From: Leptothermofonsia sichuanensis E412
GTDB taxonomy: Bacteria; Cyanobacteriota; Cyanobacteriia; Leptolyngbyales; Leptolyngbyaceae
Length of the DNA: 64,000 nt
Reading direction: 5' to 3'
NCBI RefSeq assembly: GCF_019891175.1
Contig: NZ_CP072600.1
Span: 4,774,001 to 4,838,000, forward strand
A program made the translations under genes and the position numbers. Each line of letters starts with the position of its first letter. Position 1 is the first letter of the stretch. Positions 49,362 to 57,257 of the stretch are shown one piece after another. Below the pieces are notes generated by a model. It did not search any database. It was not told the DNA's origin and was given only the letters and a program-made list of their open reading frames with translations.

Positions 49362-50591
49362 TTACCGGGTGACGCGCAGAATTTTGTCCCGGGCGGGGGG
49401 GCAACTTCCCCGCCCATCACAGTTGCTGGTCGTAATATACAATTCACCATCAGGTCCCATGATTGCTTCCCTGAGCCGTCCCTGGGTGCCCTGCAAATAT
49501 ACCTCATGGCTCTGGACTTGCTGGGGCGATCGCGGATCAAAGACGATCCGGTGCAAATGCTCAGACCGGAGGGTTGCCACCATGAGACTGCCCTTCCATT
49601 CAGGAATAGCGTCGCCGGTATAAACCGCTGCCCCACCGGGAGGAGTTGCCTGCCGCCAGACCAGCGAGGGTGTTACAAATCCCTGTCCTGACTCGCAGCG
49701 ATAAATAGTGGGCCACCCCAGGTTATCGCCAGCTCTGGCAATACTGACTTTGTCGTGACCGCTCCTGCCCAGTTCGCCACTGGGACCATGATCGGTGACC
49801 CAAAGCGTGGACTTATTGAACCAATCAAACCCCTGGGTGTTGCGAATACCGGAAATATAGACCGGGCTGCTGGCAACCGGGTTATCCGCCGGCACATCCC
49901 CATCGGGGGTCACCCGCAGAATTTTGCCCGCCAGACTGCTGGGATCCTGTGAAATATCTGGTTTTCTGGCATCACCCGTTCCAATGTAGAGCATCCCATC
50001 TGGACCGAATCGGATACGCCCGCCGTTGTGATAAAGCGCTACTGGAATGTTGTCAAGGATGACGCGATCGCGGGTAGCACTCAAACCATCCTGGGCCAGC
50101 CGCCAGCGCTCAACTCGATTCATCGGGGATTCGTTGACATCCGCCGTGTAGTACACGTAGAACAGTCGATTGCTGGCAATCTCAGGGTGAGCTGCAATTC
50201 CCAGCAAACCGCCTTCACCGCTGTCCGTCACCTGAATGGTGGCCACAGGTTGAGAACGAAGGTTACCATTCTGCACCAGTCGAACCCGCCCTGGTCGCTC
50301 CGTCACCAGCATGTCCCCATCCGACAGAAAGGCAATGCCCCAGGGCACCTCAAGCCCGGTTGCCACCTCTTCAACCCGTATACTGACCCGTCCCTGGGGA
50401 CCAAACCCACTCTCCACCAGGGTGCAGGAGGCAGTTTGGGCAACTTCCTGGGCAGCGGTGGCTGGTGGCTGGCTGGAGTTGGGGGAGGCTGGGCTATCTG
50501 ATGAGATTGTCTGAGGTTGGGGGCGATCGCAAGCCGTCAGCCCTATCACCCCAATGATCAAACCCGTTGTCAAAATAGGTATGAATTTCAT
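49362..50591 (-). CDS. PQQ-type soluble aldose/glucose dehydrogenase, lipoprotein
   Basis: 409 residues. A lipoprotein signal (TTGLIIGVIGLTAC) is followed by a Ser/Pro/Gln linker and a six-bladed beta-propeller of the soluble glucose dehydrogenase family: TGLEVPWGIAFLSDGDMLVT, GEGGLLGIAAHP, YHNGGRIRFGPDGMLYIGTG and WVTDHGPSGELG. The family oxidises aldoses in the periplasm using PQQ. No pqq genes are in the window, so cofactor supply is unproven and some family members may work without it. The C-terminal Cys-containing SNCDGRGSCPPARDKI could form a disulfide. Confidence 0.88.
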   Translation of the reverse strand: MKFIPILTTGLIIGVIGLTACDRPQPQTISSDSPASPNSSQPPATAAQEVAQTASCTLVESGFGPQGRVSIRVEEVATGLEVPWGIAFLSDGDMLVTERPGRVRLVQNGNLRSQPVATIQVTDSGEGGLLGIAAHPEIASNRLFYVYYTADVNESPMNRVERWRLAQDGLSATRDRVILDNIPVALYHNGGRIRFGPDGMLYIGTGDARKPDISQDPSSLAGKILRVTPDGDVPADNPVASSPVYISGIRNTQGFDWFNKSTLWVTDHGPSGELGRSGHDKVSIARAGDNLGWPTIYRCESGQGFVTPSLVWRQATPPGGAAVYTGDAIPEWKGSLMVATLRSEHLHRIVFDPRSPQQVQSHEVYLQGTQGRLREAIMGPDGELYITTSNCDGRGSCPPARDKILRVTR

Positions 50592-50988: not shown

Positions 50989-53900
50989 ATGAACTTTCAG
51001 CAGTTCGTTGACCAGTTACCCCATCTCTATCAAAACTGGGGACTCCCTTCGGTTTGTCCTGCATCTTGCCAATTTCAGGGATTGCTGGAATGGTTGGGCA
51101 ATCCGATAACAGCCGCCGCGGTGCCGTTGCTGAATCAGGCGGTGAATTGTATGGCTCCAGAGGCTGTCTACTGCGAAATCGGCTGTTTGTGGGGAACTCA
51201 TGTCATTGGTGCACTGTATGGACATCGCGATCGCCTGGGTTATGCCGTAGAGAACCCCGCCCGGATCGACCCGCAGGGAGAAATGGTGGAGCAGTTGCTG
51301 GAGAATCTGACTGCCTTTGATTTGCAGGAACAGGTTTATTTCTGTGCGCAGGAGACGGAAGAATTTTTTGCGGATCTGGGTGCCACCGGGTCTGTGGATC
51401 GGATCGGGGTTTATTTCTATAACGGAGCGTCGGATTACCGATCGCAACTCTTAGGGCTGCTGCTGGTCAGGCCATTTCTGGCAGATCAGGCGTTGATTGT
51501 TCTGGGGCAGGCAGATTTGGAAACTGTGCGGCAGGCAGCCTGGGATTTTTTAGCCACTCACCCCCAGGCACAGATGTTGATCGATCTGTCAAAACAGACT
51601 GGTCATCCAGCCTTTGGCTCTGGTCTGCTGGTGCTGAGTTGGGATATAAATACCAGTCCAGCCTCATCCAACCGGGTTCAGCCCGTCGAGGAAGCGGTGC
51701 TTCATGGGATGACTTCTCTGGAGCAGCACCAGCGCCTCCTGGGTGCAGAGAGTCTGCGTCATGAAGCAGCCCAGCTTGTCGTTGAAGGACAACTGGAAAG
51801 TGCAGAAAGAATCTATCAAAAAGTTTTGTTGTATGACGGCAGCCATGCTGAAGTCTGGCAGAACCTGGGAATGGTGCGCTACCTGATTGGCAAAGATGAG
51901 GGTGCACTGGATGCCTTGCAGGTTTCTCTCCAGTTAGACCCTCAAAATGCAACGCCTTACCAGATTGCTGGGCTGGTTCTGGAGCGGTTAGGGCGGGTGG
52001 ATGAGGCAATCACCGCCTATCAGCAGGCGATCGCCCTCAAGCCCACTTACCTGGATGCCCTGAATAAGCTGGGAGAACTGCTGGCCCGGCAGGGAAATTT
52101 GACTGAGGCAGAAGCGCTGTTTCGGCGGGCGATTGCGACATCCCCCCAGTGGAGTGCTGGTCATGTCAACCTGGGGAATGTGTTGATGCAACAGCAGCAG
52201 TGGGAAGCCGCGATCGCTGAATATCGCCAGGCAGCAAATCTCAATCACCGGGATCCCCAGATCTGGCATCACCTGTCTGAGGCGTATCGGGCAGTGGATG
52301 ACCCTGACCAGGCCGCCTTTTGTCAGGTGTTCTCGCTTTATCATCAGGGGGCCTTTGAGCAGGCGATTGAGGAATTTGAAGCCCACCTTTCGATTGACCA
52401 GTTGGATACGTATATAAAATGTTTGATGCTCTATGACTGCTACTCAACCTGTGGCAGGACAGCGCAGGTGGTTCAGTGTGCTGAACGGGCTGCCCAACTG
52501 CGGCCCGATGATGCGTTTCTGCAAATTGCACCCAAACTGGTTTTGCCCATTCTGTACCAGTCGTCTGAAGAACTGGAGGCTTACCGGCAACGTTGCCTGG
52601 AGGGATATCGTCTGATGCAGCAGTGGCTGGAACCAGATAAGAGCCAGGAACAGCCCCTTCAGTTTGAGGCCATTCAAAACTTCACCAATTTCTACCTCAG
52701 CTATCAGGGGTTTAATGATCGCTCCGTTTACGAGACGTGTGGTCGGCTGCGCCACCAGTTGATGGCAAAACGCTATCCCGGGCTGGTTCAGCCATTACCC
52801 ATGCCCCCTCTGAGTGCTGCCGGCAAAATTCGGATTGGTTATGTGGCAGAGTCCCTGGGAAACAACAGCGAAACTCGCTGGGCGGCTGGCTGGCTGAAGC
52901 ACCACGATCGCAGCCAGTTTGAAATTTACTGCTACAGCCTGGATTCCACTTCTGATTTGCGCAGTGAACAGTTCCGACTGCTGAGTGATGTTTTCTATCA
53001 TTTACCCAATGATTTAGAGGCCGTTTGTCAGCAAATCCGGTCCGATCAACTTCATATTCTGGTGTTTCTGGCATTGGGAACGCGGGTCAAAATTGGCGCG
53101 ATCGCCAGCTTACGACTCGCTCCTGTGCAATGTAGCGCCTGGGGACATCCGGTGACTTCTGGGTTGCCCACCATTGACTACTACCTGTCCAGTGAGTTGA
53201 TGGAGCCAGAAAACGCCCAGGAGCACTACAGTGAAGAACTGGTGCGTTTACCAAACATCGGGCTTTGCTACCCGAAAACTCAACTGCCCACCCCAACCAA
53301 AACACGGGAAGACTTTGGACTGCGGGATGATGCGGTGCTGTATCTTTCCTGCCAGTTGATCTTTAAATACCTGCCCCAGCACGACTATTTATTTGCTGAG
53401 ATTGCCCGCCGGGTTCCCCAGGCTCAAATTGTTTTTGTTCTCCGTTCCACAGTAAAAAATACGACCCCTGCTGGGATTGAGCAACAGTTTCGCCAGCGGT
53501 TGCAACGGGCGTTTGCCGCTGTTGGACTGGAAATGGAGGATTACTGCGTGTTCTTGCCCGGTCAGGATTTGCAGGGGTATGCCAGCTTATTGAATTGCAC
53601 GGATGTCTATCTGGATACGCTTGGCTTTTCGGGAGGATATACCACCCTGGAGGCACTGGCGGCTAAGTTGCCGGTTGTGTGTTGTCCTGGTGAGTTAATG
53701 CGTGGACGCCAATCCTATGGGGCGCTCCAACTTCTTGGAGTGACTGATACCATTGCCTATAGCGAAGCAGAATATATTGATATAGCGGTTAAGTTGGGGC
53801 TGGAACCGGAATGGCGGCAGGCGATCGCCCGGCGGATTGAGGAATCCCACGGCAACCTGTTTGAAGACACAGCCTGTGTTGCTGGGCTGGAGGAGTTTTA

Positions 53901-54519
53901 CCGCCAGGTTGTTCAAACCCGATTAATGGAACCAGCCACCGCCTTCCCTGAATCTCCAGACCCACCAGAAACGGCTTCAAAGTTGATTCTCCATGTGGGG
54001 TGTGGTCCCTATAACCCAGAGGCTTTACCCAGACCTTTCCGCACAGCAGACTGGCGCGAGGTACGGTTAGATATCAACCCTGCGGTGCAACCAGATATCA
54101 TCGGTTCGATTACCGATCTGAGTGCCGTTCCCAATGACTCAATGGACGCCGTTTTTTCGTCCCACAACCTGGAGCACATCTACGCCCATGAAGTGCCCAT
54201 TGCCTTAGGCGAATTTTACCGGGTCTTAAAGCCCGGTGGCAGAGTCATCATTACCCTGCCTGACATTCAGGTAGTGGCAGAATATGTTGCCCAAGGAAAA
54301 TTAGAAGAACCCCTTTATGAATCGCCCGCCGGCCCCATTTCTGCCATTGATATTCTGTACGGGTTGAGGACTGATATTGCCCAGGGCAATCATTTCATGG
54401 CCCATCGCACCGCCTTTACAGGCGACAGTCTGAGCCAGAAGTTACAGCAGATCGGGTTTAACCGGGTAGAAATTCAGCGCGATCACCTGAACCTGTGGGC
54501 AATCGGGCATAAGGAGTGA
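50989..54519 (+). CDS. Methyltransferase-like / TPR / GT41 glycosyltransferase / methyltransferase fusion
   Basis: 1176 residues, four parts. Residues 1-220: a methyltransferase-like Rossmann segment (VYCEIGCLWGTHVIGALYGH, then IGVYFYNGASDYRSQ). About 255-470: TPR repeats (AEVWQNLGMVRYLIGKDEGA; AYQQAIALKPTYLDALNKLG; and two more). About 610-965: SPINDLY/OGT-type GT41 domain (IRIGYVAESLGNNSETRWAA, PVQCSAWGHPVTSGLPTIDY, GYTTLEALAAKLPVVCCPGE). About 995-1176: class I methyltransferase (LILHVGCGPYN, FSSHNLEHIYAHE, RVLKPGGRVIITLPDIQ). GT41 enzymes transfer GlcNAc or other sugars to Ser/Thr or to surface glycans. The methyltransferases may modify the same product. A single long frame without frameshifts supports a true fusion. 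The 3' end converges with the GH1 gene at 14 bp. Confidence 0.92.
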   Translation: MNFQQFVDQLPHLYQNWGLPSVCPASCQFQGLLEWLGNPITAAAVPLLNQAVNCMAPEAVYCEIGCLWGTHVIGALYGHRDRLGYAVENPARIDPQGEMVEQLLENLTAFDLQEQVYFCAQETEEFFADLGATGSVDRIGVYFYNGASDYRSQLLGLLLVRPFLADQALIVLGQADLETVRQAAWDFLATHPQAQMLIDLSKQTGHPAFGSGLLVLSWDINTSPASSNRVQPVEEAVLHGMTSLEQHQRLLGAESLRHEAAQLVVEGQLESAERIYQKVLLYDGSHAEVWQNLGMVRYLIGKDEGALDALQVSLQLDPQNATPYQIAGLVLERLGRVDEAITAYQQAIALKPTYLDALNKLGELLARQGNLTEAEALFRRAIATSPQWSAGHVNLGNVLMQQQQWEAAIAEYRQAANLNHRDPQIWHHLSEAYRAVDDPDQAAFCQVFSLYHQGAFEQAIEEFEAHLSIDQLDTYIKCLMLYDCYSTCGRTAQVVQCAERAAQLRPDDAFLQIAPKLVLPILYQSSEELEAYRQRCLEGYRLMQQWLEPDKSQEQPLQFEAIQNFTNFYLSYQGFNDRSVYETCGRLRHQLMAKRYPGLVQPLPMPPLSAAGKIRIGYVAESLGNNSETRWAAGWLKHHDRSQFEIYCYSLDSTSDLRSEQFRLLSDVFYHLPNDLEAVCQQIRSDQLHILVFLALGTRVKIGAIASLRLAPVQCSAWGHPVTSGLPTIDYYLSSELMEPENAQEHYSEELVRLPNIGLCYPKTQLPTPTKTREDFGLRDDAVLYLSCQLIFKYLPQHDYLFAEIARRVPQAQIVFVLRSTVKNTTPAGIEQQFRQRLQRAFAAVGLEMEDYCVFLPGQDLQGYASLLNCTDVYLDTLGFSGGYTTLEALAAKLPVVCCPGELMRGRQSYGALQLLGVTDTIAYSEAEYIDIAVKLGLEPEWRQAIARRIEESHGNLFEDTACVAGLEEFYRQVVQTRLMEPATAFPESPDPPETASKLILHVGCGPYNPEALPRPFRTADWREVRLDINPAVQPDIIGSITDLSAVPNDSMDAVFSSHNLEHIYAHEVPIALGEFYRVLKPGGRVIITLPDIQVVAEYVAQGKLEEPLYESPAGPISAIDILYGLRTDIAQGNHFMAHRTAFTGDSLSQKLQQIGFNRVEIQRDHLNLWAIGHKE

Positions 54520-54533
54520 GCAGCACCCCCTGC

Positions 54534-55931
54534 TCATACCACTCGATTTTGCCGAATGCACTCCTGATACCAGTGAAAGCTGGCTTTGGGAATGCGTTGC
54601 TGTGTCTCGTAATCGGTATACAGGATGCCAAAGCGGCGATCGTAGCCCCATGCCCATTCAAAATTATCCAGTAAGCTCCAGAGAAAATACCCCCGCACAG
54701 GATAGCCCTCATCCACTGCCCGGTGCAGGGCTTTCAGGTACTGCCGCAGGTAAAGAATTCGCTCCAGGTCAATCACTTCTCCCTGGTTGTTCACCACATC
54801 GGGAGCTGCACAGCCGTTTTCAGTCACCAGCAATGGCAATTCGGGTTTGCCCAGGCTGTCACTGACATGGCGGACTGCCCAGTAAAGCGCTTCTGGTAAT
54901 ATCCAGAGCCAGGGCATGTGCAGACGCGGGTAGTTATCACGGAAGCTGAGGAACTCGTAACCCTGCTGGTTCTCAGCCGCGCGGACATAAACTCCACTGT
55001 AAATATTTAGCCCCAACCAGTCCAGGGGTTGTTGGATGATGTCCAGATCACCGTCCTGAATATCTGGGGCATCAGCCCCCAACTGTTCCAGCAATGCAGG
55101 ACTGTAGGCACCGGTCAGCACTGGAAAGATGATGCCACCATTACTGCCACAGGTATGAAGCGCCTTTTGGGCAGCCACCATATGTTCTGGCGATTCACTA
55201 ATCGGCACGGTCACCGCAAAATTATCCACCAGGGCAACCGTGCAGGCACGGGGGGAAGCGGCGCGGATTGCCTGGCAGCCCAACCCGTGTGCCAGAACGG
55301 CATGGTGGGAAGTTTGCCAGACTTCTTTGGCAGTACGGACACGGGTGCCAGGGGCGTGGGGTGGGGTTGCTTCGACCCCGTACCCCATGTGGGTAAAGCA
55401 GGAAATTTCGTTGATAGTCATCCAGTCTGTGATGCGATCGCCCAGCCGACTGACGACTGCCGTTACATAGTCTGCGTAGTCCATGGCCATTTCTCGACTG
55501 CGCCAGGAGCCGTAACGGTCTTCCAACGCCTGCGGACTGTCCCAGTGAAACAGGGTGGCATGGGGGGTAATGTCATGCTCCCGCAGGCAGTCTACCAGGC
55601 GTCGATAAAAATCTACTCCGGCTTCATTGACCCTGCCCCGTCCATCAGGGATGATGCGTGGCCAGGCAATACTAAACCGATAATGCTGAATGCCAAGTTC
55701 TGCCATCCATTTCACATCTGTTTCGTACAGATGATAGTGGTTACAGGCAATCTCCCCAGTTTTGCCGTCGTAGATGTGTCCAGGGGTGGCGCTGAAGGTA
55801 TCCCACACGCTGGGCTGACGCCCCGCTTCAGAGACTGCCCCTTCTATCTGGTAGGAGGCGGTAGCAGCACCCCACATAAATCCTGGTGGGAACTGGTAGC
55901 TGGTCATTGGAGCAATTTCATGTTCAAGCAT
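54534..55931 (-). CDS. Family 1 beta-glucosidase
   Basis: 465 residues. The GH1 N-terminal signature is FPPGFMWGAATASYQIEGAV. The acid/base Glu is in WMTINEISCF and the nucleophile Glu in LPLLVTENGCA. The sugar-binding NFEWAWGYDRRFGILYTDYE lies near the C-terminus. It hydrolyses beta-glucosides. Starts possible at 55931 (ATG), 55907 (ATG just before the signature) or a GTG at 55946 that overlaps the stop of the preceding gene. Upstream on the same strand, almost contiguous, are two glycosyltransferase genes, which suggests one operon. Confidence 0.93.
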   Translation of the reverse strand: MLEHEIAPMTSYQFPPGFMWGAATASYQIEGAVSEAGRQPSVWDTFSATPGHIYDGKTGEIACNHYHLYETDVKWMAELGIQHYRFSIAWPRIIPDGRGRVNEAGVDFYRRLVDCLREHDITPHATLFHWDSPQALEDRYGSWRSREMAMDYADYVTAVVSRLGDRITDWMTINEISCFTHMGYGVEATPPHAPGTRVRTAKEVWQTSHHAVLAHGLGCQAIRAASPRACTVALVDNFAVTVPISESPEHMVAAQKALHTCGSNGGIIFPVLTGAYSPALLEQLGADAPDIQDGDLDIIQQPLDWLGLNIYSGVYVRAAENQQGYEFLSFRDNYPRLHMPWLWILPEALYWAVRHVSDSLGKPELPLLVTENGCAAPDVVNNQGEVIDLERILYLRQYLKALHRAVDEGYPVRGYFLWSLLDNFEWAWGYDRRFGILYTDYETQQRIPKASFHWYQECIRQNRVV

Positions 55932-55938
55932 AGGAAGA

Positions 55939-56616
55939 TTAACCACGACGATACCATCGAGCGATGACCTCTGGCGACAGGCGCAACAGGTAGGCGAGAA
56001 TCACCAGTTGATTCACCAGGGTTGTTTTTAAGATGCCCAGCCTTTGCCAGCGGCGCCCAGAGGTGCAGACGGAAGCAGGGGCGATCGCGATTTTTCCCAA
56101 CCGGCGGAGCTGGCGTAAAAATTCAAAATCCTCCATAATCGGCAGTTCAGGAAACCCACCCAGTTCATGAAATACCGAAGCTTTGAGAAAAATTGCCTGG
56201 TCCCCGTAGGGCATTTGCAACCAGCGCGATCGCCAGTTGACCCCCCACTCTACCAGCCGCAGTCCCCACTGAGTTCCGTCAATGCGTAGCTCAAACGCCC
56301 CGGCCACCACATCCGGTTGAGCCAGCGTTTGTCTGATTAAACGCTCAAATCCCTCTGGCAGGATAGTATCCCCGTGCAAAAACAATAAAATATCTCCAGT
56401 GGCAACCCTGGCCCCCTGGTTCATCTGGGCAGCACGACCGGGGGTTCCCTGAATGACATACGCTGCAAGCGTGGTGGCAATTTTGACCGTGTCGTCCTGA
56501 CTGCCACCATCCACCACGATGACTTCAATCATCTCTGGAACCTGAATGGACCTTAAAGTGTTTGCCAGATGGTTTGCTTCGTTCAAAACTGGAATCACTA
56601 CAGAAATATTGACCAC
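55939..56616 (-). CDS. GT2 glycosyltransferase, TIGR04283 type (arsenosugar-associated)
   Basis: 225 residues starting at a GTG whose first base is the last base of the preceding stop (TAGTG), with GGGAAG five bases before. This is translational coupling. The GT-A fold shows ISVVIPVLNEANHLANTLRS, VIVVDGGSQDDT and LLFLHGDTILPEGF, and the acceptor region FPELPIMEDFEFLRQLRRLG. In cyanobacteria this type is usually found beside the DUF2064 protein, as here, and both are annotated with arsenosugar synthesis, though direct evidence for the reaction is limited. An open frame upstream of the GTG is not coding. Confidence 0.9.
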   Translation of the reverse strand: MVNISVVIPVLNEANHLANTLRSIQVPEMIEVIVVDGGSQDDTVKIATTLAAYVIQGTPGRAAQMNQGARVATGDILLFLHGDTILPEGFERLIRQTLAQPDVVAGAFELRIDGTQWGLRLVEWGVNWRSRWLQMPYGDQAIFLKASVFHELGGFPELPIMEDFEFLRQLRRLGKIAIAPASVCTSGRRWQRLGILKTTLVNQLVILAYLLRLSPEVIARWYRRG

Positions 56617-57257
56617 TAGACTTCCCTGCCTGTCCCCTTGCTTCGTCTGACCTGCTCCCAAATCTCCAGATCTGAAGGATAATCGACATCCGAGAGTAAT
56701 GGCAGATAGGCGATCGCCAGTCCCAGTTGTTCTGCCTTGCGGACTGTTTGATGCAAAACCTGATCTGTACTCCAGGCAATTTCTTGAAAAATTTCTGGAA
56801 TAAATCGCCTGCCGCCAACCAGGTAGTATCCTCCATCTACGGCTGGACCCAGCACCAGATCCCGTTGCTGGAGTTGATGAAAGGCTTGTTGCAGCACTGG
56901 AGTATCCAGAGCGGGGCAATCCGTGCCAATGATGATGACTCTGGTGCTGCCCTGGTTGAACGCGGACTGAGCAGCGCGGGCAAGGCGATCGCCCAGGTCC
57001 CCTGCTCCCTGTTCCTGATAGCTTAAATCGTCGCCCAGCCATGCTTGCATCCGGGCAATATCATTACCAGCAAACCGGACTTCTAACGTGACCGAATCAG
57101 AAGCTCGCAGCTTTCTCGCCTGAGCCAGGGTATGCTCTGCCATCTGTTGATGGAGGTTTGCGGCTCCCTCAGCCCCCAATGCTGGAATCAAACGAGTCTT
57201 GGCAGCCCCCGGCACAGGATAGCGGGTAAAGATAATCAGACGATCAGCGTTAACCAT
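56616..57257 (-). CDS. DUF2064 / TIGR04282-type nucleotidyl-sugar-like transferase
   Basis: 213 residues. The N-terminus LIIFTRYPVPGAAKTRLIPA is the family signature, a nucleotide-diphospho-sugar-transferase loop. It is followed by VIIIGTDCPALDTPVLQQAF with the conserved Asp-Cys and DLVLGPAVDGGYYLVG. The gene is coupled to the GT2 downstream. TIGR04282 members are annotated as arsenosugar biosynthesis glycosyltransferases; no arsM or arsenic resistance gene is in the window. A hairpin-bearing repeat (57259-57352) forms its leader and starts two bases upstream of the ATG, so no normal ribosome-binding site is visible. Confidence 0.9.
   Translation of the reverse strand: MVNADRLIIFTRYPVPGAAKTRLIPALGAEGAANLHQQMAEHTLAQARKLRASDSVTLEVRFAGNDIARMQAWLGDDLSYQEQGAGDLGDRLARAAQSAFNQGSTRVIIIGTDCPALDTPVLQQAFHQLQQRDLVLGPAVDGGYYLVGGRRFIPEIFQEIAWSTDQVLHQTVRKAEQLGLAIAYLPLLSDVDYPSDLEIWEQVRRSKGTGREV

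What the first reader, a model, noticed from the sequence alone, without database searches (positions are those of the whole stretch)
50989..54519. Four-part fusion: methyltransferase-like, TPR, GT41, methyltransferase
GT41 (OGT/SPINDLY-type) proteins normally consist of TPR plus the catalytic domain. Here a methyltransferase-like domain precedes the TPRs and a complete second one follows the catalytic domain, all in one uninterrupted frame. This suggests coupled glycosylation and methylation of one acceptor, such as a surface glycan or glycoprotein.
Basis: partly seen in the sequence, partly recalled or inferred. Interest (0 to 1): 0.62.

Follow-up and report, generated by a model that had tools for sequence, protein, structure and literature searches.

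The report
Four-domain cyanobacterial pilin-locus sugar/methyl enzyme
A cyanobacterial gene really does join a worn-out methyltransferase, a protein-binding repeat region, an OGT-like sugar transferase and an intact-looking methyltransferase in one protein, and because its relatives often sit beside the main pilus gene it probably decorates type IV pili.

Summary
The four-part ORF (50989-54519, +, 1176 aa) is real and no misassembly: 12 more genes in 11 other cyanobacterial genomes carry the same order. The two Rossmann ends are not equivalent. The N-terminal one has a Methyltransf_24/COMT-type fold; its metal-site residues are kept in 0 of 13 four-part proteins but in 7 of 23 relatives without the C-terminal domain, including a paralogue in this genome. 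The C-terminal one keeps its SAM-motif Gly and following Asp in 38 of 38 aligned rows. GT41 keeps the catalytic lysine (K793) but has Asn626 where most relatives have His. The main new point is context: in 9 of the 12 other four-part genes (4 of 6 genera) a major-type pilin gene lies within 3.3 kb, in seven as divergent neighbour; among 36 more distant GT41 loci there is none. In the window's own genome pilA lies elsewhere. Best reading: a second pilA-locus GT41, beside the Ogt-type one, that modifies PilA or its glycan, with methylation by the C-terminal domain. Methylation and acceptor are inferred, not shown. New variant of a known kind.

The parts
50989..54519 (+). whole four-part gene, 1176 aa
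   Evidence: 12 further genes of the same architecture
50989..51654 (+). NT: degenerate Methyltransf_24 / COMT-like domain (residues 1-222)
   Evidence: 15.0 bits, below cut-off; relatives above cut-off; fold
51421..51432 (+). N145-G-A-S148, the place of D-G-A-H in intact relatives (metal site lost)
51505..51510 (+). G173-Q174, the place of D-D in intact relatives (metal site lost)
51772..52317 (+). TPR repeats (residues 262-443)
   Evidence: helix pairs
52324..52803 (+). helical TPR-like stretch between TPRs and GT41 (446-605), poorly conserved
52804..53913 (+). GT41 (OGT/SPINDLY-type) catalytic domain (606-975)
52864..52866 (+). N626, aligned with the His of GNH in human OGT
53365..53367 (+). 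K793, aligned with the catalytic lysine of OGT (Lys341 of T. terrenum OGT, mutated in 5djs)
53914..53985 (+). variable linker (976-999)
53986..54516 (+). CT: class I SAM-dependent methyltransferase (Methyltransf_11), residues 1000-1176
53989..54006 (+). CT motif I LHVGCG (1001-1006)
54070..54072 (+). CT acidic residue D1028 (38 of 38 aligned rows)

Best explanation
It is a pilA-locus type of GT41 enzyme of cyanobacteria with an added C-terminal methyltransferase. Most likely working: in the cytoplasm the TPR superhelix binds prepilin PilA, the GT41 domain puts a sugar on it (or extends the sugar placed by the Ogt-type enzyme of the same locus), and the tethered C-terminal domain methylates the product, most simply an O-methyl cap on the sugar. 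The N-terminal methyltransferase-like domain has lost its metal site and serves as a scaffold; in relatives without the C-terminal domain some copies still look active, so methyl transfer may have passed from the N- to the C-terminal end. Shown here: architecture, recurrence, loss of N-terminal metal-site residues, intact C-terminal motifs, pilA linkage in relatives. Inferred: acceptor, sugar, methylated atom, order of steps.
For: A type IV pilin gene (for L174: Pilin_GH 8.4e-26 plus N-terminal methylation motif) lies within 3.3 kb of 9 of 12 other four-part genes, in seven of them as divergent neighbour; 21 of 34 closer loci L059-L092 hold it against 0 of 36 more distant GT41 loci L093-L129 without L123. 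A rough chance estimate for 9 of 12 is below 1e-14, with pilin counts of the window's genome and genes taken as independent, which they are not. An Ogt-type GT41 (~750 aa) is in 20 of those 21 loci and in 5 of the 9 pilin-linked four-part regions; a Methyltransf_31 gene in 10 of 21 and 4 of 9. A review states that an Ogt gene is adjacent to pilA in many cyanobacteria and is involved in PilA glycosylation (PMC12288463, passages). CT: G1004, D1028, N1060, H1063, H1139 in 38 of 38 rows; window against same-genus orthologue: CT 82%, GT41 80%, NT 70%, TPR 59% identity. CT also occurs as a separate gene between two TPR-GT41 genes in a Burkholderiales contig (L123) and, fused to NT, near GT41 genes in 4 of 7 fetched NT-CT loci. 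FlmG shows that an N-terminal binding domain can give a cytoplasmic O-glycosyltransferase its appendage-protein specificity (PMC7591256, abstract).
Against: In the window's own genome the gene is not near pilA (pilin at 6.198 Mb, gene at 4.825 Mb), nor are L170, L176, L179. The nine linked genes come from only four genera, five of them from one. GT41 has no His at the position where 29 of 34 Ogt-type, 14 of 23 NT-GT41 and 52 of 80 other rows have it, so sugar transfer is not assured. The full-length model has pTM 0.55, so relative domain placement, and thus any hand-over between active sites, is unsupported. CT occurs without GT41 in the same protein in 20 of 24 CT-bearing genomes of the phylum sample, so it does not need this partner. 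Three betaproteobacterial loci with CT (L130-L132) show no GT41 gene.
Confidence: 0.5

Rival explanations
1. The GT41 domain is a pseudo-glycosyltransferase; the protein is a pilin (or Ogt-complex) methyltransferase built on an OGT chassis, with CT as its only active site.
For: Asn (11), Ser (1) or Gln (1) instead of His at position 626 in 13 of 13 four-part proteins; the window also has Tyr884 where 10 of 13 have His. NT-CT proteins without any GT41 exist in 11 of 386 genomes. CT is at least as similar to the window as GT41 is in 9 of 12 four-part pairs.
Against: K793 is kept in 150 of 150 GT41 rows (13, 23, 80 and 34 in the four groups) and 91 of 370 GT41 columns are invariant in the four-part set, which looks like a working nucleotide-sugar site.
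Confidence: 0.17
2. The acceptor is not pilin but a polysaccharide or other glycoprotein; the pilA linkage reflects co-regulation of motility genes.
For: ogtA and pilus genes depend on one sigma factor, and polysaccharide genes on the same cascade, in Nostoc punctiforme (PMC6495340, passages). Three of 12 other four-part genes, and the window's, are unlinked to pilA. Other sugar genes lie near: Glycos_transf_1 proteins in the pilA-linked regions L175 and L178 and a C-methyltransferase (Methyltransf_13/14) in L168; a Glycos_transf_1 protein beside a stand-alone CT in L166.
Against: TPR-GT41 enzymes known so far act on proteins (recalled); an Ogt gene beside pilA is tied to PilA glycosylation. 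The neighbours were only partly named (20 proteins), so a polysaccharide cluster is not excluded.
Confidence: 0.2
3. CT trimethylates the C-terminal lysine of pilin, the modification reported for Synechocystis PilA1.
For: 25 of 31 pilins listed end in Lys; the modification is cited in PMC12288463 (passages).
Against: The pilins of the window's genome, of its same-genus relative and of G006 end in Asn although all three genomes have CT; Lys-ending pilins are common in loci whose GT41 lacks CT (CT elsewhere in those genomes was not sought). The Methyltransf_31 gene of the loci is an alternative candidate.
Confidence: 0.06
4. Both N-terminal and C-terminal domains are active methyltransferases.
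For: NT keeps E63, G65, G69 in 13 of 13 four-part proteins and 32 of 183 NT columns are invariant.
Against: The full metal-site pattern is absent in 13 of 13 four-part and 10 of 10 NT-CT proteins; below the Pfam cut-off in the window.
Confidence: 0.05

Closest known systems
Cyanobacterial Ogt/OgtA (GT41 beside pilA)
   Same: GT41 in the pilA locus; [quoted passage not shown] That the ~750-aa Ogt-type genes seen here are this Ogt is my inference.
   Different: the Ogt-type frames are more like this genome's L004/L186 than like the window's GT41 (30% identity to it) and carry no NT or CT match
Human OGT / Arabidopsis SPINDLY
   Same: TPR plus GT41, among the best sequence and fold matches; catalytic lysine conserved
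   Different: no methyltransferase domains in them (recalled); the His aligned with N626 is His558 of human OGT (number recalled)
NT-TPR-GT41 three-part cyanobacterial proteins (own paralogue L002/L003)
   Same: first three parts, 41-49% identity
   Different: lack CT; 7 of 23 keep the NT metal site
Caulobacter FlmG
   Same: modular cytoplasmic O-glycosyltransferase of an appendage subunit with N-terminal substrate-binding domain (abstract)
   Different: modifies flagellin; sequence relation not tested here
Methyltransf_24 / catechol O-methyltransferases
   Same: fold of NT
   Different: metal-site residues lost in the window protein

Membership tests
GT41 (OGT/SPINDLY) | GT41 profile above curated cut-off | tested here: met
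   PF13844, 113.2 bits, cut-off 25
GT41 (OGT/SPINDLY) | catalytic lysine | tested here: met
   K793 aligned with Met341 of the K341M T. terrenum structure and with the OGT lysine
GT41 (OGT/SPINDLY) | conserved His of the GNH motif | tested here: not met
   Asn626; 0 of 13 four-part proteins have His (where the column is labelled H498pos)
GT41 (OGT/SPINDLY) | TPR superhelix before the catalytic domain | tested here: met
GT41 (OGT/SPINDLY) | sugar transfer to protein | not testable with these tools
   needs biochemistry
Methyltransf_24 / metal-dependent O-methyltransferase (NT) | fold | tested here: met
Methyltransf_24 / metal-dependent O-methyltransferase (NT) | profile score over cut-off | tested here: not met
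   15.0 against 26.3 bits; NT of L180, L040, L052 and L168 pass, L137 (22.0) does not
Methyltransf_24 / metal-dependent O-methyltransferase (NT) | metal-binding Asp residues | tested here: not met
   N145, G173, Q174
Class I SAM methyltransferase, Methyltransf_11 (CT) | profile over cut-off | tested here: met
   39.5 bits, cut-off 21.2
Class I SAM methyltransferase, Methyltransf_11 (CT) | motif I glycine and following acidic residue | tested here: met
   G1004 and D1028 in 38 of 38 rows
pilA-locus glycosylation gene | adjacent to major pilin in its own genome | tested here: not met
   the four Pilin_GH places of the genome lie elsewhere
pilA-locus glycosylation gene | orthologues near a major-type pilin gene | tested here: met
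   9 of 12 within 3.3 kb

The most novel reading that the evidence does not exclude
A single-chain pilin glycosyl- and methyltransferase in which the methyl-transfer job moved within one protein: the original N-terminal metal-dependent methyltransferase decayed into a scaffold while an unrelated methyltransferase without that metal site was gained at the C-terminus, and the GT41 active site was retuned (His to Asn) in the same lineage, giving O-methyl-capped pilin glycans.
Probability: 0.3. Interest if true: 0.68.

Novelty: new variant of a known kind. Interest (0 to 1): 0.5.

Why it matters
Cyanobacterial pilin glycosylation is reported to involve Ogt, but few of the other enzymes are named. 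This family gives concrete candidates in the pilA locus itself and predicts a methylated pilin or pilin glycan. Fused and separate versions of the same parts (NT-GT41, NT-CT, NT-GT41-CT, CT alone) make the question of who methylates what directly testable, and the natural GT41 His-to-Asn change bears on how OGT-type enzymes work.

Tried and rejected
Misassembly or chance ORF: rejected, 12 further genes in 11 other genomes. Loss of the NT metal site as a consequence of gaining CT: only weakly supported, since 16 of 23 relatives without CT lack the full pattern too. CT in G032 as a piece split off a four-part gene: not supported, that separate CT (L158) falls with the stand-alone CT rows (95/88). 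One single fusion event: not settled; 11 of 13 four-part GT41 domains form one clade (100/100), L036 and L169 fall elsewhere on or near long branches, and CT needs three changes on the tree. Labels: 11 four-part rows appear there as 'GT-CT' because the fetched locus was cut before NT, so the group counts of that call for 'NT-GT-CT' mean nothing. Position labelled H498pos: with the offset that puts the aligned lysine of human OGT at 842, the His is 558; these OGT residue numbers are recalled. Rows dropped: CT pieces under 150 aa; the split NT-CT gene L143 is not among the 10 NT-CT rows; the NT row of L055 is cut. NCBIfam and PHROGs gave no specific family. Papers seen as passages and not used further: PMC8546353 (it proposes Sll1696 for PilA1 glycosylation), PMC4144903, PMC4683255; PMC7690835 had no hit for the words asked. 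No paper on this four-part architecture appeared in the listings; these cover open-licence PMC only and most listings were capped (for example 15 of 3,276 and 20 of 618), so absence from print is not shown. Khayatan 2017 and Suban 2022 are known to me only through citations. On re-checking this report I raised the rival 'not pilin' from 0.18 to 0.20, because sugar genes near some pilA-linked regions had been left out.
Full report
What is there. The frame 50989-54519 (+) is a single 1176-aa ORF. Pfam finds TPRs at 262-443, GT41 from about 610 and Methyltransf_11 at 1027-1088. NCBIfam's best glycosyltransferase match is far below its cut-off (38.5 of 1000 bits). The best solved relatives are OGT and SPINDLY structures, by sequence (the T. 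terrenum OGT first for the GT41 part) and by fold of the predicted model. The gene stands alone: the divergent neighbour upstream (49362-50591) is a glucose/sorbosone dehydrogenase and the convergent one downstream (54534-55946) a GH1 protein.

Recurrence. In the window's own genome one paralogue has NT, TPR and GT41 but no CT. Among 39 genomes searched as relatives (own genome included) 18 had a match at 1e-40, and seven of these, own included, hold a match that runs into CT of a long GT41 frame. Searching CT alone: 24 of 386 genomes sampled from the phylum have it; 4 are four-part frames, 11 are NT-CT proteins of about 420 aa without GT41 (one split over two frames), 9 have CT alone or broken. 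In the order, 9 of 42 genomes have it, ten copies, all in frames of 1158-1213 aa. Altogether 13 distinct four-part genes from 12 genomes and six genus codes. In betaproteobacteria CT is a separate gene: in L123 it lies between two TPR-GT41 genes on the same strand; in L133 the end of a GT41 frame precedes two CT pieces at a contig edge; in L130-L132 no GT41 was seen.

The two methyltransferase ends. NT folds like catechol-type O-methyltransferases (best E 4.8e-8, TM about 0.5-0.6). Seven of 23 NT-GT41 proteins without CT keep D-G-A-H-D-Y ... D-D; 0 of 13 four-part proteins and 0 of 10 NT-CT proteins do. The window has N-G-A-S-D-Y and G-Q. That these are the metal ligands follows from knowledge of the catechol O-methyltransferase family (recalled). 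The loss is not confined to proteins with CT: 16 of 23 without CT lack the full pattern too. NT is nevertheless conserved (32 of 183 columns invariant; 70% identity to the same-genus orthologue), so it is kept for something. CT carries LHVGCG, and G1004, D1028, N1060, H1063 and H1139 are the same in 38 of 38 rows (the window is in twice, so 37 distinct; pieces under 150 aa were left out).

GT41. The catalytic lysine is K793 (aligned with position 341 of the K341M T. terrenum structure) and is present in 150 of 150 rows. The His of the GNH motif is Asn in 11 and Ser or Gln in 2 of 13 four-part proteins, against His in 14 of 23, 52 of 80 and 29 of 34 rows of the other groups (Tyr in 8 of 23 and 24 of 80). 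The window also has Tyr884 where 10 of 13 have His. Activity is therefore plausible but not assured.

Neighbourhood. In neighbour clusters of 30 loci one recurrent gene next to four-part genes proved to be a type IV pilin. A model built from five of these pilins was run over the loci. Within 3.3 kb of the four-part gene it is found in 9 of 12 regions: L168, L169, L174, L175, L177, L178, L197, L198, L199; not in L170, L176, L179. In seven of the nine it is the divergent neighbour; start-to-start distances are 167-678 bases in the six that lets one measure. The nine come from four genus codes, five of them from one code, so they are not independent; the five pilins used for the model are among the nine. 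Loci L059-L092: 21 of 34; loci L093-L129 without L123, more distant GT41 hits of which only L127 has NT: 0 of 36. Flanks were mostly about 8 kb and several contigs were shorter, in both sets. An Ogt-type GT41 is in 20 of the 21 loci and 5 of the 9 regions, a Methyltransf_31 gene in 10 of 21 and 4 of 9. Twenty neighbour proteins were named by Pfam; they include Glycos_transf_1 proteins in L175 and L178 and a C-methyltransferase in L168, which would fit pilin-glycan or polysaccharide assembly alike. In the window's genome pilA, the Ogt-type gene and the Methyltransf_31 homologue are at 6.198, 3.005 and 5.407 Mb, the four-part gene at 4.825 Mb: the set is dispersed there.

What is known. [quoted passage not shown] PMC6495340 (passages) has ogtA and most pilus genes dependent on sigJ. 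I take the Ogt-type genes seen here to be that Ogt (inference); the gene described is then a second GT41 of the locus, in a separate group by best match. I found no paper on its architecture in the listings named under Tried and rejected, which are capped and cover open-licence papers only.

Mechanism. I favour: TPR binds prepilin; GT41 transfers or extends a sugar; CT methylates the product; NT is a scaffold. By analogy, FlmG's N-terminal domain gives flagellin specificity (PMC7591256, abstract). CT acting on the pilin C-terminal lysine is unlikely, because the pilins of the window's genome, G001 and G006 end in Asn. The full-length model (mean pLDDT 79.8, pTM 0.55) does not settle how the domains face each other.

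History. GT41 tree of 67 rows, chosen from 116: 11 four-part genes form one fully supported clade; L036 and L169 fall elsewhere with a long-branched row between; CT presence needs three changes. CT tree of 37 rows: 11 of the 13 fused and all 11 NT-CT rows lie together (90/85), the fused L135 and L138 sit at an unresolved fork, and 12 of 13 stand-alone CT rows, betaproteobacterial ones included, form a group (95/88; L157 is a far outlier).

Noticed in passing
L061, L064, L066, L069, L076, L081, L087, L088, L089, L091, L168, L169, L174, L199: A Methyltransf_31 protein of about 450 aa lies in the pilA locus here; a candidate for the pilin lysine methylation reported in Synechocystis. A homologue in the window's genome is at C1:5407244.
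   Followed up: partly
pilins: 25 of 31 listed pilins end in Lys; those of the window's genome, G001 and G006 end in Asn.
   Followed up: partly
L137, L139, L142, L144-L150: Two-domain NT-CT proteins (~420 aa) that join the degenerate NT directly to CT without TPR or GT41; GT41 genes are near in 4 of 7 fetched loci.
   Followed up: partly
L155 (901-1389 and the CT gene beside it): A stand-alone CT gene with two in-frame TAG codons lies next to a type IV pilin gene.
   Followed up: partly
L143: NT-CT gene split over two frames in G130, where genomes of the same genus code have one frame.
   Followed up: no
L094, L096, L098, L110, L111, L113, L116; L051: Very long frames with two GT41 domains in one protein (the second one cut in L051).
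   Followed up: no
window 55939-57042 and 56616-57257: Overlapping - strand frames for a GT2 glycosyltransferase and a DUF2064 protein; the GT2 match begins only at residue 147, so its start is probably further in.
   Followed up: no
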